NCBI RefSeq assembly: GCF_000002865.3
Contig: NW_001865040.1
Location: forward strand, 1,248,174-1,312,173
DNA length: 64,000 nucleotides
Direction of reading: 5' to 3'
Origin: Monosiga brevicollis MX1
Taxonomy: Eukaryota > Opisthokonta > Choanoflagellata > Craspedida > Salpingoecidae
A program made the translations under genes and the position numbers. The notes under the pieces were generated by a model. The model had not been told where the DNA came from and ran no database searches. It was given only the letters and a program-made list of their open reading frames with translations. This document shows, piece by piece, positions 58,965 through 64,000 of this stretch (its first letter is position 1; each line of letters starts with the position of its first letter).

Positions 58965-60550
58965 ATGTCCTACCTGAACAAGAGCCAGCTGCAACTGGAC
59001 CAATCCGTGAATGTGATCGACGCCTCGGGCTCGGTCAAGCATGTGGGCGTCATTGTCTTTCTCCACCTCGCGAGCGATCAGCCCTATGTCGAGATTGAAG
59101 TACGACTGTGCAAATGCGCTGCTCTGCTGACCCTTTGACTCGCTGATCACCATTGCCCTGGCCCTTCTGTGGCTGCCACTGACGCCATCTGCCCGCCCGC
59201 TACTACCTTCCTCCGACGCGTTTTGCAGGTTGTGCAAGAGGATGGCACAACGAAGCGCATCACAGTCGACTTGCGCACAAACCGCCTCCCCCCCCCCCGC
59301 TCCGGGCCCAAAGTCCTGTGCTCTTGGCTGTTCCAACGGCGTTACTTGACCTGACGCTATTGCCATCTTGTATGTCTGACCGCTCTCTGGCCTTGTGCCG
59401 CTGGCTTGCCACAGGTTTGCCTCAGCTCAACTAAGATACTTCACTTTTGAACTCTTCCGCTGTGTCGAGCAAGTTGGCCGCTACGTCCTCAATGACGCAG
59501 TATTCGTACGCACCCTTCGCCCCGCTCGACACTGACCATGACACATCGCTGAGAATGCTAATCTTTTCTGGGCCCTCCCGCCTCGACACCTACACTGTCC
59601 TGGGTTGCCTTAGTTGCTCGCAGCTGAACAATTCGTGCCGGGCGAGCCCAACGACAACTTGCGCCGCCTAACCTTGTATCTTCCTGAGGGCAGCTACTCT
59701 GGTCACTTTTCGGTATGTACCCACGGCCACGGCCTGTATATACACATGGCACCCACCAACAGTGCTTCGCGTGACCTCTCGTCTTTCATTTTGTCTTGTT
59801 TTGTTGCTCCTTTTCTTTTTTTTCTTCTTCTTCCCCCTCCCTCTCCCCCCTCCCCCCCTTCTCTCTCTTTTCCTCCATGTATCTGCCTTGCCTGCCCTTG
59901 TCCTGCTTGCTGTTGCACCATGCTCCATTGACACGTCTCGGACTCTGTTAGGTGTGCATCCGGAGCGGTGCATTTTCCCATCACACGCATGTTCTGGAGG
60001 TCATCAACCCCGCTGCGCCTGCTTTACGCAATGGCCAGCTGGTGGACGCCCTACGGGAAGACGATGTTGCAGAGCAACGCCTCTTCGGGCTTGTGCAACC
60101 GGCTACTGAGGACCACTCGGCCTACGTGGATGTTGAGTGGTCCTTTCGTCTTGATCAAACTCAAGAAGTCTTGTTGCTGTTACGCAACATCTGCGTGGCC
60201 GACTCGGCGCACAAAGTGTCCTTTGGCGAGGACGAGGATGTGCAGACCACCGTCTTTGGCGTCATCAACTGCGACCAGTTGGCCGTTGGTCGAGCCCGTG
60301 TTTATTTGCCAAGCCCACGAGGGGATCAAAATGTTCAGGTTTGTCCAGGCCAACACGCGCCCGTGAAGGTTGTGCGCGTTCAGCTGACCATCCCTTCGCC
60401 GTCTTGGCACCCTTGGCACAGGATGACGACGTACAAGTCACCTTTTTCATTCATCAGAGAGGCGATCGGTCCCAAACTCGAGGTCCAACTCGAGGTCCTG
60501 AGCTCGCCCACCCTGTGGGCATTGCAGTAGCAGACAAACACAGCTCGTAG
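58965..60550 (+). CDS. Unrecognised 309-residue protein
   Basis: Six exons (58965-59099, 59229-59317, 59415-59505, 59614-59712, 59952-60338, 60422-60550) join in phase to 310 codons. I do not recognise the family. It starts MSYLNKSQLQLDQSVNVIDA and alternates short beta-like strands (KHVGVIVFLHL, YVEIEVVQED, LTLYLPEGSYSG, AYVDVEWSFRLD, VTFFIHQRGD) with acidic loops, suggesting a beta-rich fold. FELFRCVEQVGRYVL is a clear helix. No signal peptide or membrane span. The exon 2 donor (GTGCTC) is weak but is the only one that fits the frame of exon 3. A poly(A) signal follows at 60678. It shares a divergent promoter region with alpha-tubulin, and the next gene downstream is the STIL-like gene, so a cytoskeletal link is possible but unproven. 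Confidence 0.72.
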
Positions 60551-60894
60551 TTTATTGCCGCTCAACCATCTTTACGAGCCAAGAAGATACAGGCCGCCCC
60601 CCCCCCCGCCCCTCATCCCGCCAATTTATTTGCTGTCATGGATTATTTGCTGTTATGGAGTCAAATAACGTTCCATGAATAAATTCTTACATTTTGGAAC
60701 CCGTTACACACTAAACTTTCTCGCTTCACTCTGTCACATCGAGAAGACGCTGCACGACCAGGGGGACATAAGCGACGCGGAGATCTATTGCAGCGGCGGC
60801 GGCGGCGGTGGTGTCATCATTGTGGTGGTGGGCTTGCGACGGTTCGACCTCGCATCACCCTCTGCTGGGTGGGGGCGGGGATAAAACAGTACCA
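60551..60894. other. Short intergenic stretch between two plus-strand genes
   Basis: 344 bases holding the 3' UTR of the orphan and the promoter of the STIL-like gene. It contains a C-run at 60600-60608 and a GGC repeat at 60791-60810. Confidence 0.55.
60678..60683 (+). terminator. Poly(A) signal AATAAA
   Basis: Perfect AATAAA 128 bases after the stop of the 309-residue orphan, followed by T-rich sequence. Confidence 0.55.
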
Positions 60895-63581
60895 ATGGCG
60901 GAACAAGGGTCGCGGCACCAGAGCATTGTGGCTCGGTCTGGCTCGGACCAAGCAGACGATGGCTTTCCATTAACACGATCCAACCTCTGGAATGCAGCAC
61001 CAAATGGGACGCCACAAACAGTTGCCTGGCCAGCCTTTGATGTTGCCCTGCAGCACACCGCAGCGCAGCTGCTGACCACTTCGTCTCAGTTGCACCAACA
61101 CCTGGCCGCGCTCGCAGGTCATTGGACGACCAGCCCACCATCCAAGCCAGACTCATCCCCGGCCCTCACCCTCCTGCTGTCCGAAGTCCAATTTGACTCC
61201 TCGCCCAACGTGAGCCACACAAGCCTGGCCAGCCACGCCAGCCTGGCCAGCGGTGGTGATGACCAGCTCGCCGCCACGATCGAATTGCTGTCAGCCGAGC
61301 CCGCGACGGCGGTCCTGACCAGCCAAGACCAGCTACTCATCACTGGCCACCTGTCGCGCATCTCAAGCTCGTCCAATCAAGCCGTCCTGCACCTGCAAAT
61401 CAGTGCCCGTGCGCTTGGCCTCCAGGTAAGTTTATCCCATTTGAGCACCCACCTTGCCAAAATTGAATTGCTCAACCTTGACTCGCTGCGTACCAGGCCA
61501 TACCCCTACAACCCGTGCCGCACGTCAACAGCGCGCTCTGGCGCCACCTAACCTCCACCTCCCCGCCCGAGGTAACCCCATACGCTCCTGCTACCGCTTC
61601 ATGGTATTGCACAGAGACCCGATCCCGGGCCTGCACTGGAGCTGATCAGATCGCTCCCTCCTTCTGCTCCTTCTGCACTCCCGTTATCCGCTCGCAGACG
61701 CATGGTTGCCACAGCGGCTATCTCACCATGGACGGACACCGCCGAGCTCGGCTTGTGCTGAACGATGATCCACGTGCGACCACTTTACCGCTCGTCGGGA
61801 TGTACGTCCTACAGCCAGCTCGTCATTGCCTGAAGGAAGAATTGTCTCCACCTCACCCTTGCTTCTGCTTCCTGACAGCTGGTGTTTCTGCCCCGTTGCC
61901 TTGGCCTCACTTTGGTGGCGCCAGCAAGCTTTGAACTACTGGCTCGACGCGCGTCTGAAGGACCGCGTGTTCCGGGACAAGACCTGCTGCCTGCTTGCTG
62001 CCTTTGGGCCCGGCCAAACGTGCGTTGCACCCTCTTACTCCCGCTGGCACAAAGAGCAACGCTGGGGAAATTTCAAATGCGTAAATACCATCTCGACTGC
62101 GACTCACCTGAACTCCCTCTTTAGCCAACCAACATGGTTTGAGCTGTGCTTCAGCGATGTGGAGCCAGCCGTGGTCAAGCGCTCTGCCACCTTCTCACTG
62201 CCCCCACCTGCCTTGCCCATCTCCCCAGCACCAACCGCGGTGAGAATGCACATTCGTTGGCTCCTGGCGCCTTCACAAGATTCTTCCGGGGCTCGCCCTC
62301 ACTTGACACTGACACGCTCATCATTGCCATCCTTGGCGACAATCGTAGCCGCTGGTGACACGCATTGCCTTGCCTGAGCATGACGACCAAGCGCTAGGCC
62401 AGCGCGAGCTCTCCTACATAACCACGCACGCATCGTCCCCTGCACGCCCAAACCGCAAGACGGCTGATCTCAGCGCGCGCTCGCCGGGCCCGACGCATAG
62501 TCCACGCCTGAGCCCCATTCCTACTGCAGGTCCCAGTGAACCGGATAGCCCCGCCATCAGCCTCGTGAGTAGTCCAGAGCCAGAGCCAGCACCCTCTCCG
62601 AGGCATGCAATCGACAGCTCGCGCATCCTCCATAGCCTGCCCGAATCGTGGCGTGAAGCACGGCCCTTTACGGCCTCACCCAGCTCGCACCGTCCGCCCC
62701 TTACGGATGCGGGCACAACACCCTCTGCCATTGACATGGCACCGATGAGTACCAGAGCCACGAGTACCGGGAACGATGTTGACACTGAGGAAGAAGCACG
62801 ACCACGCCAGACATCTCCGGTCAAGGCCGCCCCTGCAGCGTGGCATGCCGAGCCCACCCCACACACCAGCGACTGTCTGGACCTCACTTTTGATAGTGTG
62901 GACGAAGGACCCGGCTTATCCACCACGAGTGGCCCTGCGGCACCCATGCACTCGAGCGAGACCAAAACAGCCACGCTTTCGCCCGTCTCTGCCAGCCTGG
63001 CCCCTCGATGTGCCAGCGCCAGCTCGAACCCTGTCTCGTCACCATCAAAATCGCAGCTACAGACTCGTCGACGTCAAGCACCGGGTCTAACAGATGTGAC
63101 CAATCGTGCCTGCCCAGATGCACAGCTATCTGCTGCACTCCCACAACTGCATGTATGTTCCACAGCACGCGCGCGATTTGGCAGTTGCCTCGAGTGTGGC
63201 GTGTGTTGCTCATGCTTTCAGCCGCCCCTGTATTGGGCTTTACAGGCACGCCTCAAACAAGTCTTGGATGCAGTGGCCTTGCCTAAGCCGCCCATTCAAG
63301 ACGCAGCACCAGCACAACGGTTGCAACGGCGCCCCAAAGCTGCCTTGCGCACGGAGATACAGCCTCCTGTATACATGCAAGTGCCCGCTGTACCGCTGAG
63401 TCCCTACATGCACGTTTCGCCGATTGAAACAAAGTCTTGGCTTGGGAGCACATCAGCCCCCAGCGGTGCGAGGTCAAGCCAGAGCCCCGGCACTTTGCCC
63501 GTGGCAGCCAAGAACGGGCGTAAGCTGCTGGACACGGTGTTTCTTCGCAGTCAACCCGCGCTGGGATCCGACGAAGGGTAG
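60895..63581 (+). CDS. STIL: STIL/Ana2-like centriole duplication factor
   Basis: Six exons (60895-61425, 61497-61571, 61698-61801, 61879-62019, 62125-62239, 62349-63581) join in phase to 733 codons. Exons 2-5 match the conserved N-terminal half of human STIL as I recall it: AIPLQPVPHVNSALWRHL (human KPIPIIPTALARNL), GYLTMDGHRRARLVLNDDPR (human KYGYLTMDETRK...SDP), LPLVGIW (identical), LNYWLDARLKDRVF (human LRYIFNSSVQERVF) and WFELCFSD (human EFYECFP). The LPLVGIW match appears only after splicing exons 3 and 4, which supports the gene model. The C-terminal 410 residues form one exon: disordered, S/P/T-rich, with a CGVCCSCF cysteine cluster and a candidate coiled coil (YWALQARLKQVLDAV), where STIL carries its PLK4-binding coiled coil. 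A C-terminal STAN motif is not clear. In animals STIL binds PLK4, SAS-6 and CPAP to start procentrioles; that role is inferred. Confidence 0.8.
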
Positions 63582-64000
63582 GGCAAGCCATGGTCACTAA
63601 TCGTATATCTGGATGTATTTATGAGCATGTTACTGATTAAAATTTAAAATGATTTATGCGTGCTGCGTTCGTGCCCCATACCGCCCATTGCAAATCACAA
63701 GCTTGAAGTCACATCTGCTCTAATTCATTCAAAAAAAAAAGCAAAAAAAATTCGAAAGAGGCATCAGGAGGAAGAATGTGGGGCACAGAGTCAGTCTGCA
63801 CGCCTATGGTCGCCTGCTTTTCCTCTTCTTCTTCTTCTTCTTCTTCTTCCTCTTCGTCGTCTTCTTCTTCTTCTTCTTCTTCTTCTTCTTCTTCTTCTGC
63901 TGCTGCTGCTGCTGCGTCTTCTTGTTGTTCTTCTCAGTCTCTCGCAGAAGTTGAACAACAGGGTGTGTCAACATGCGTGAGTATGCTCTGGCGCGCGGCG
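63582..64000. repeat. 3' flank with (TTC)n/(GCT)n repeat
   Basis: After the STIL-like stop the sequence is AT-rich to about 63660, has A-runs at 63731-63750, then an imperfect TTC repeat (63824-63898) joined to GCT units (63898-63914). On the minus strand this would read as poly-Glu/Lys/Gln. It might belong to a gene continuing beyond the right edge, but nothing confirms that. Confidence 0.7.

What the first reader, a model, noticed from the sequence alone, without database searches (positions are those of the whole stretch)
60895..63581. A STIL/Ana2-like centriole factor outside animals
STIL is poorly conserved and best known from animals. Here four consecutive exons rebuild its conserved core in the right order (PIP...L, GYLTMD, LPLVGIW, RLKDRVF, WFELC). 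LPLVGIW is created exactly at a splice junction, which a chance match would not do. The protein is shorter (732 residues versus nearly 1,300) and the C-terminal STAN motif is not evident, so the centriole-assembly module may be pared down in this lineage.
Basis: partly seen in the sequence, partly recalled or inferred. Interest (0 to 1): 0.75.

Follow-up and report, generated by a model that had tools for sequence, protein, structure and literature searches.

The report
Choanoflagellate STIL centriole-assembly gene
This is the STIL gene of the choanoflagellate Monosiga brevicollis, a real member of a known family of proteins that help build centrioles; databases already label it as such, but the public gene model appears to be wrongly fused to its neighbour and mis-spliced.

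Summary
Six exons (60895-63581) splice into a 732-residue protein that matches Pfam STIL_N at 76.5 bits (cut-off 27; E 2.6e-21) and the solved Trichoplax STIL N-terminal domain (E 9.6e-8).

The organism is almost certainly Monosiga brevicollis. The same gene is public as MONBRDRAFT_35916, with a UniRef name beginning 'STIL N-terminal doma'. 'Outside animals' is therefore not new, and papers imply STIL in flagellated fungi too. The public 924-residue model looks chimeric: it uses upstream exons, skips exon 2 and retains intron 4.

'Pared down' is only partly supported. STAN was not recognised, but an exact CPAP-binding motif, PRxxPxP, is present (6-7% expected by chance), and the genome's CPAP keeps all 8 STIL-contact residues tested. 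A short helix resembles the PLK4-binding coiled coil, weakly. SAS-6, CPAP and a PLK4-like kinase are in the genome.

No RNA evidence was available, and the structure model was unusable.

The parts
60895..61425 (+). exon 1, aa 1-177 (start ATG; first half of the N-terminal domain, diverged)
   Evidence: open frame, donor GTAAGT; the STIL_N match begins at aa 149
61497..61571 (+). exon 2, aa 178-202 (AIPLQPVPHVNSALWRHL...)
   Evidence: aligned to Trichoplax STIL; skipping it drops STIL_N from 79.1 to 57.1 bits
61698..61801 (+). exon 3, GYLTMD ... LPLVG
   Evidence: 126-nt intron 2 gives 79.1 bits against 69.4 (45 nt) and 68.6 (retained)
61879..62019 (+). exon 4, (I)W ... RLKDRVF ... FGPGQ
   Evidence: junction completes LPLVGIW; 38-nt alternative intron 3 scores 74.4
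62125..62239 (+). exon 5, QPTWFELCFSDVEP ...
   Evidence: retaining intron 4 (62020-62124, in frame and stop-free) lowers the score to 73.6
62349..63581 (+). exon 6, aa 323-732 and stop, Pro/Ser/Ala-rich tail
   Evidence: single open frame; composition
62502..62522 (+). PRLSPIP (aa 374-380), exact match to the CPAP-binding consensus PRxxPxP
   Evidence: 1346 of 20000 shuffles of aa 300-640 and 1172 of 20000 whole-protein shuffles contain the pattern; consensus from PMC3776556 (passages)
63228..63281 (+). LYWALQARLKQVLDAVAL (aa 616-633), candidate for the STIL coiled coil
   Evidence: longest Pro/Gly-free run of the tail; ungapped score 32 to human STIL-CC of 4yyp, reached by 64 of 5000 tail shuffles; only helix drawn in the tail of a low-confidence model of the public protein (its residues 807-822)

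Best explanation
This is the STIL orthologue of the choanoflagellate Monosiga brevicollis, best spliced as a 732-residue protein. It most likely works as animal STIL does, as a scaffold at the start of centriole (basal body) assembly: its N-terminal domain helps place it, a PRxxPxP motif in its tail binds the TCP domain of CPAP/SAS-4, and a short helix oligomerises and/or meets PLK4. Shown: family membership of the N-terminal domain, the exon structure by profile score, the PRxxPxP match, and the presence of SAS-6, CPAP and a PLK4-like kinase in the genome. Inferred: all binding, location and function. How it would reach SAS-6 without a recognisable STAN motif is open.
For: STIL_N 76.5 bits, E 2.6e-21, cut-off 27. 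Trichoplax STIL N-terminal domain is the best PDB match (E 9.6e-8; 2.9e-8). PRxxPxP at aa 374, between the N-terminal domain and the coiled-coil candidate. CPAP TCP repeats in the genome (3 matches, 2 over cut-off), with the 8 residues named in PMC3776556 as contacting STIL (F978, Y994, Y996, H1003, T1005, F1015, Q1019, E1021 of zebrafish; passages) identical in 8 of 8 against 52 of 100 overall. SAS-6 N domain 71.9 bits, cut-off 25. A kinase whose four best PDB matches are PLK4 (189-191 bits), before PLK3 (166), PLK2 (162), Snf1-type kinases (161-156) and PLK1 (153).
Against: No function tested and no RNA reads. The part before aa 149, which should hold the first half of the N-terminal domain, is matched neither by STIL_N nor in the PDB alignment. 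In one search designed Armadillo proteins follow Trichoplax at E down to 5.4e-7 through exon-1 sequence (no single stretch of theirs passes), so the PDB E-value alone is not decisive; the Pfam score is. STAN not recognised. The coiled-coil match is weak: shuffled human CC reaches the score against the real tail in 189 of 5000, and 6 of 600 window frames score 32 or more, itself included; PDB searches with the coiled-coil piece and with the PRxxPxP piece found no STIL or CPAP entry. The polo-box pieces are below cut-off (21.6 against 26.9), and PB1 and PB2 scans of the genome found none, an answer the tool itself calls no proof of absence. No CPAP of a STIL-less species was compared, so the 8 of 8 may reflect other constraints. 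The AlphaFold model of the public protein is unusable (mean pLDDT 35.4).
Confidence: 0.85

Rival explanations
1. The public 924-residue model is right: the STIL core is the C-terminal part of one longer protein made with the upstream exons, without exon 2 and with intron 4 kept.
For: It is the deposited model, and 923 of its 924 residues map exactly to open frames of the window.
Against: The upstream frame runs to its own stop at 60530; the fused model drops 159 bases of exon 1 and all of exon 2; its STIL_N score is 48.3 against 76.5 for the whole spliced protein.
Confidence: 0.05
2. It is a STIL-family protein but a truly reduced one: it recruits CPAP and perhaps PLK4 but has lost STAN, and SAS-6 is recruited another way.
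For: No second Pfam match even at E 10; only 99 residues lie after the coiled-coil candidate; PMC6559791 describes a pericentrin route to SAS-6 in animals (passages).
Against: No STAN profile was at hand; in a protein this diverged such a motif could be missed. No other choanoflagellate STIL was obtained for comparison (each returned only P0001).
Confidence: 0.35
3. The domain is STIL-like but the protein does something else in Monosiga.
For: Only the N-terminal domain reaches significance by sequence; fly Ana2 lacks this region (PMC4471874, passages), so it is not what every family member needs for centriole assembly.
Against: CPAP motif in the expected order and intact CPAP surface; other core genes are present; choanoflagellates build flagella (general knowledge).
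Confidence: 0.08
4. The motifs are a chance resemblance.
For: The motifs are short when read by eye.
Against: E 2.6e-21 over residues 149-292; best PDB match is a STIL domain.
Confidence: 0.005

Closest known systems
MONBRDRAFT_35916 (Monosiga brevicollis MX1), UniRef name beginning 'STIL N-terminal doma'
   Same: same gene; eight exact blocks covering 923 of 924 residues map to the window, residue 394 spanning a junction
   Different: public model uses upstream exons, loses 159 bases of exon 1 and all of exon 2, retains intron 4
Trichoplax adhaerens STIL N-terminal domain (PDB 5oi9, 5oid)
   Same: aa 176-295 align to its residues 196-317, E 9.6e-8
   Different: the earlier part, with the CEP85-contact residues L47 and R50 (PMC5928214, passages), was not aligned
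Vertebrate STIL
   Same: order N-terminal domain, PRxxPxP, short coiled-coil candidate
   Different: 732 residues against 1263 in zebrafish (PMC3776556, passages); STAN not recognised; coiled coil only weakly similar
Drosophila Ana2
   Same: PRxxPxP and a central coiled coil are family features (PMC3776556, PMC4471874, passages)
   Different: Ana2 lacks the N-terminal conserved region that is this protein's clearest feature (PMC4471874, passages)

Membership tests
STIL (vertebrate type) | STIL_N / conserved N-terminal domain above curated cut-off | tested here: met
   76.5 bits against 27, profile positions 140-286 of 404; positions before 140 and after 286 not matched
STIL (vertebrate type) | CPAP-binding motif PRxxPxP between N-terminal domain and coiled coil | tested here: met
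   PRLSPIP at aa 374; the pattern alone is expected in about 6-7% of shuffles, so supportive rather than decisive
STIL/Ana2 | central coiled coil (tetramer, PLK4 PB3 binding) | tested here: inconclusive
   one candidate helix, reached by 64 of 5000 and 189 of 5000 shuffles; PDB search empty
STIL/Ana2 | STAN motif (SAS-6 binding) | tested here: inconclusive
   no Pfam match besides STIL_N at E up to 10; no STAN profile was available to test directly
STIL/Ana2 | short C-terminal conserved region (CR4) | not tested
   no reference alignment fetched
STIL/Ana2 | required for centriole/basal body duplication | not testable with these tools
   needs tagging and gene removal
STIL/Ana2 | partners CPAP, SAS-6 and PLK4 in the same genome (supporting, not strictly defining) | tested here: met
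   SAS-6, CPAP TCP, PLK4-like kinase by best PDB match; its polo-box pieces are below cut-off

The most novel reading that the evidence does not exclude
The CPAP-STIL docking surface, and probably the PLK4-STIL-CPAP scaffold, was already fixed before animals arose, while the STAN link to SAS-6 is an animal addition, so choanoflagellates recruit SAS-6 by a different contact.
Probability: 0.25. Interest if true: 0.55.

Novelty: already known. Interest (0 to 1): 0.3.

Why it matters
STIL diverges fast and is often missed in orthology surveys (PMC10425847, passages). A better gene model outside animals gives a short, testable STIL and makes it possible to ask which contacts of the centriole-assembly module are old. 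It also shows that the public model hides exon 2 and part of exon 1 from comparative studies.

Tried and rejected
First splice guesses with a 44-nt intron 4 ending exon 4 at 62080 broke the frame (18 stops) and were dropped for 62020-62124.

Three protein searches each returned only the Monosiga protein itself; only the 7997 candidates sharing most words were scored, there were 122 candidates. The tool needs shared 5-residue words, so this does not show that other choanoflagellates lack STIL. Matches of exon 1 to designed Armadillo proteins (5 rows, 15 rows, E down to 5.4e-7) are read as compositional. A STAS_2 hit on exon 1 plus intron (15.2 bits, cut-off 29.2) was discarded. A promoter/terminator scan found nothing and has no bearing on a eukaryote gene.

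PLK4: Pfam PB1 and PB2 scans of the genome found nothing; POLO_box found a PLK1-like gene. Of the 12 loci fetched, a script looked at 8 and printed the 4 that hold an HRDLK-type frame (L018, L019, L021, L024); none of those 4 looked like PLK4, and the other 8 were not read. A candidate was then found on contig C52. A second candidate, on C56 (L038), did not look like PLK4 by eye and was not pursued.

AlphaFold on the public protein alone gave mean pLDDT 35.4, so no fold search was run.

Literature: ten searches. I opened 11 of the listed papers, for passages or one section each, and saw the rest only as listings; several listings were cut (20 of 30, 20 of 62, 12 of 322). In what I saw, no text describes Monosiga STIL. 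Figures and supplements were not seen. Hodges 2010 and Stevens 2010 are not held and were not read.

Full report
The window lies in a 39.5-Mb genome of 57 contigs. The region encodes a protein that is also public as MONBRDRAFT_35916 of Monosiga brevicollis MX1. Eight exact blocks covering 923 of the 924 residues of that public protein map to the window. The window is therefore Monosiga brevicollis, a choanoflagellate (taxonomy), or an extremely close strain.

Observation. Splicing 60895-61425, 61497-61571, 61698-61801, 61879-62019, 62125-62239 and 62349-63581 gives 732 residues and one terminal stop. The spliced protein matches Pfam STIL_N over residues 149-292 at 76.5 bits, E 2.6e-21, cut-off 27, and no other family was listed up to E 10. 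The frame 61482-61934 alone reaches 41.3 bits. In the PDB the best match is 5oi9, E 9.6e-8, which PMC5928214 (passages) gives as the Trichoplax STIL N-terminal domain. With residues 24-303 alone as query, the same chain is first at 2.9e-8, but 15 designed Armadillo proteins follow, from 5.4e-7, through exon-1 sequence, without a single stretch that passes on its own; I read these as compositional. In the whole genome STIL_N is found at one place only, this one (33 bits in the six-frame search).

Splice test. The whole public protein scores 48.3. The margins for introns 3 and 4 are small (about 5 bits), those for exon 2 and intron 2 larger. Introns 1 and 5 were not tested this way. LPLVGIW arises in 1 of 16 frame-keeping, stop-free GT-AG choices (46 pairs examined).

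The public model. P0001 takes residues 1-235 from 58965-60827, enters exon 1 only at 61054, skips exon 2, and keeps intron 4. The upstream reading frame runs to its own stop at 60530, so the two are most simply separate genes; this remains to be shown with cDNA. The upstream gene, 270 residues as joined by eye, has no Pfam match up to E 1.

Other STIL features. PMC3776556 (passages) defines the CPAP-binding consensus PRxxPxP for metazoan STIL. PRLSPIP stands at residues 374-380; 1346 of 20000 shuffles of residues 300-640 contain such a pattern, so on its own it is weak. The CPAP side adds weight: the genome has Tcp10_C repeats (3 matches, 2 over cut-off), and the TCP domain joined by eye from its exons matches zebrafish CPAP at E 1.2e-46. 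The eight CPAP residues that the paper names as contacting STIL are identical in 8 of 8, against 52 of 100 over the aligned stretch. No CPAP from a species without STIL was compared.

The human STIL coiled coil, with PLK4-contact residues L733, L736, I740, L743 and L744 (PMC4530586, passages), finds its best ungapped match in the Monosiga protein at RLLQAQIQRLLEAQSL / WALQARLKQVLDAVAL, score 32. Shuffled tails reach it in 64 of 5000, shuffled coiled coils in 189 of 5000, and 6 of 600 window frames score 32 or more, itself included. Read by eye along that alignment, extended by one residue, the five contact positions are Y, L, L, V, L. A PDB search with the piece found nothing. It is the longest run without proline or glycine in the tail and the only helix drawn in the tail of a model whose confidence is too low to use (mean pLDDT 35.4). 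I call it a candidate.

Partners. SAS-6 (71.9 bits) and CPAP are present. For PLK4, PB1 and PB2 Pfam scans of the genome found nothing, which the tool says does not show absence, and POLO_box found a PLK1-like gene. A kinase on contig C52, joined from exons by eye, has PLK4 as its four best PDB matches (189-191 bits), then PLK3 166, PLK2 162, Snf1-type kinases 161-156 and PLK1 153 (60 of 2273 shown). Its polo-box pieces match Plk4_PB2 at 21.6 bits, under the cut-off of 26.9. I take it as a probable PLK4; no tree was built.

Mechanism. By analogy with animals, PLK4 recruits and phosphorylates STIL, STIL gathers SAS-6 for the cartwheel and binds CPAP for the wall (as told in passages of PMC6559791, PMC4471874 and PMC3776556). 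In Monosiga the CPAP link is the best supported, PLK4 is possible, and the SAS-6 link is unresolved since STAN was not recognised. All of this is inference from sequence.

Novelty. The protein already bears a STIL N-terminal-domain name in UniRef. PMC13358043 (passages) speaks of loss of STIL in Neocallimastigomycota, which implies presence in other flagellated fungi. PMC6559791 (part 1 of section 4) and PMC6070874 (passages) say that the animal centriole-biogenesis proteins they searched for were found among fungi only in chytrids; the first lists STIL among those searched; the figures, which would show STIL by itself, were not seen. PMC11153136 (passages) profiled Monosiga for centrosome proteins; its figure was not seen. 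So a STIL outside animals is expected. What is added here is a corrected gene model and the CPAP-interface comparison.

Noticed in passing
58965-60827 and 61054-63578: The public gene model MONBRDRAFT_35916 appears to fuse an upstream gene to STIL, skips exon 2 and keeps intron 4.
   Followed up: yes
58965-60530: Upstream gene on the same strand, no Pfam match in the form joined by eye.
   Followed up: partly
63820-63934: TTC tandem array, 38.3 copies, 89% matches, just 3' of the gene.
   Followed up: no
61213-61251: 18-base repeat, 2.2 copies, inside exon 1.
   Followed up: no
L037:933-4649: Probable PLK4 gene on contig C52 with polo-box pieces too diverged for Pfam cut-offs.
   Followed up: partly
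L040:3739-5252 (minus strand): CPAP/SAS-4 gene with TCP-domain repeats over several exons; STIL-contact residues conserved.
   Followed up: partly
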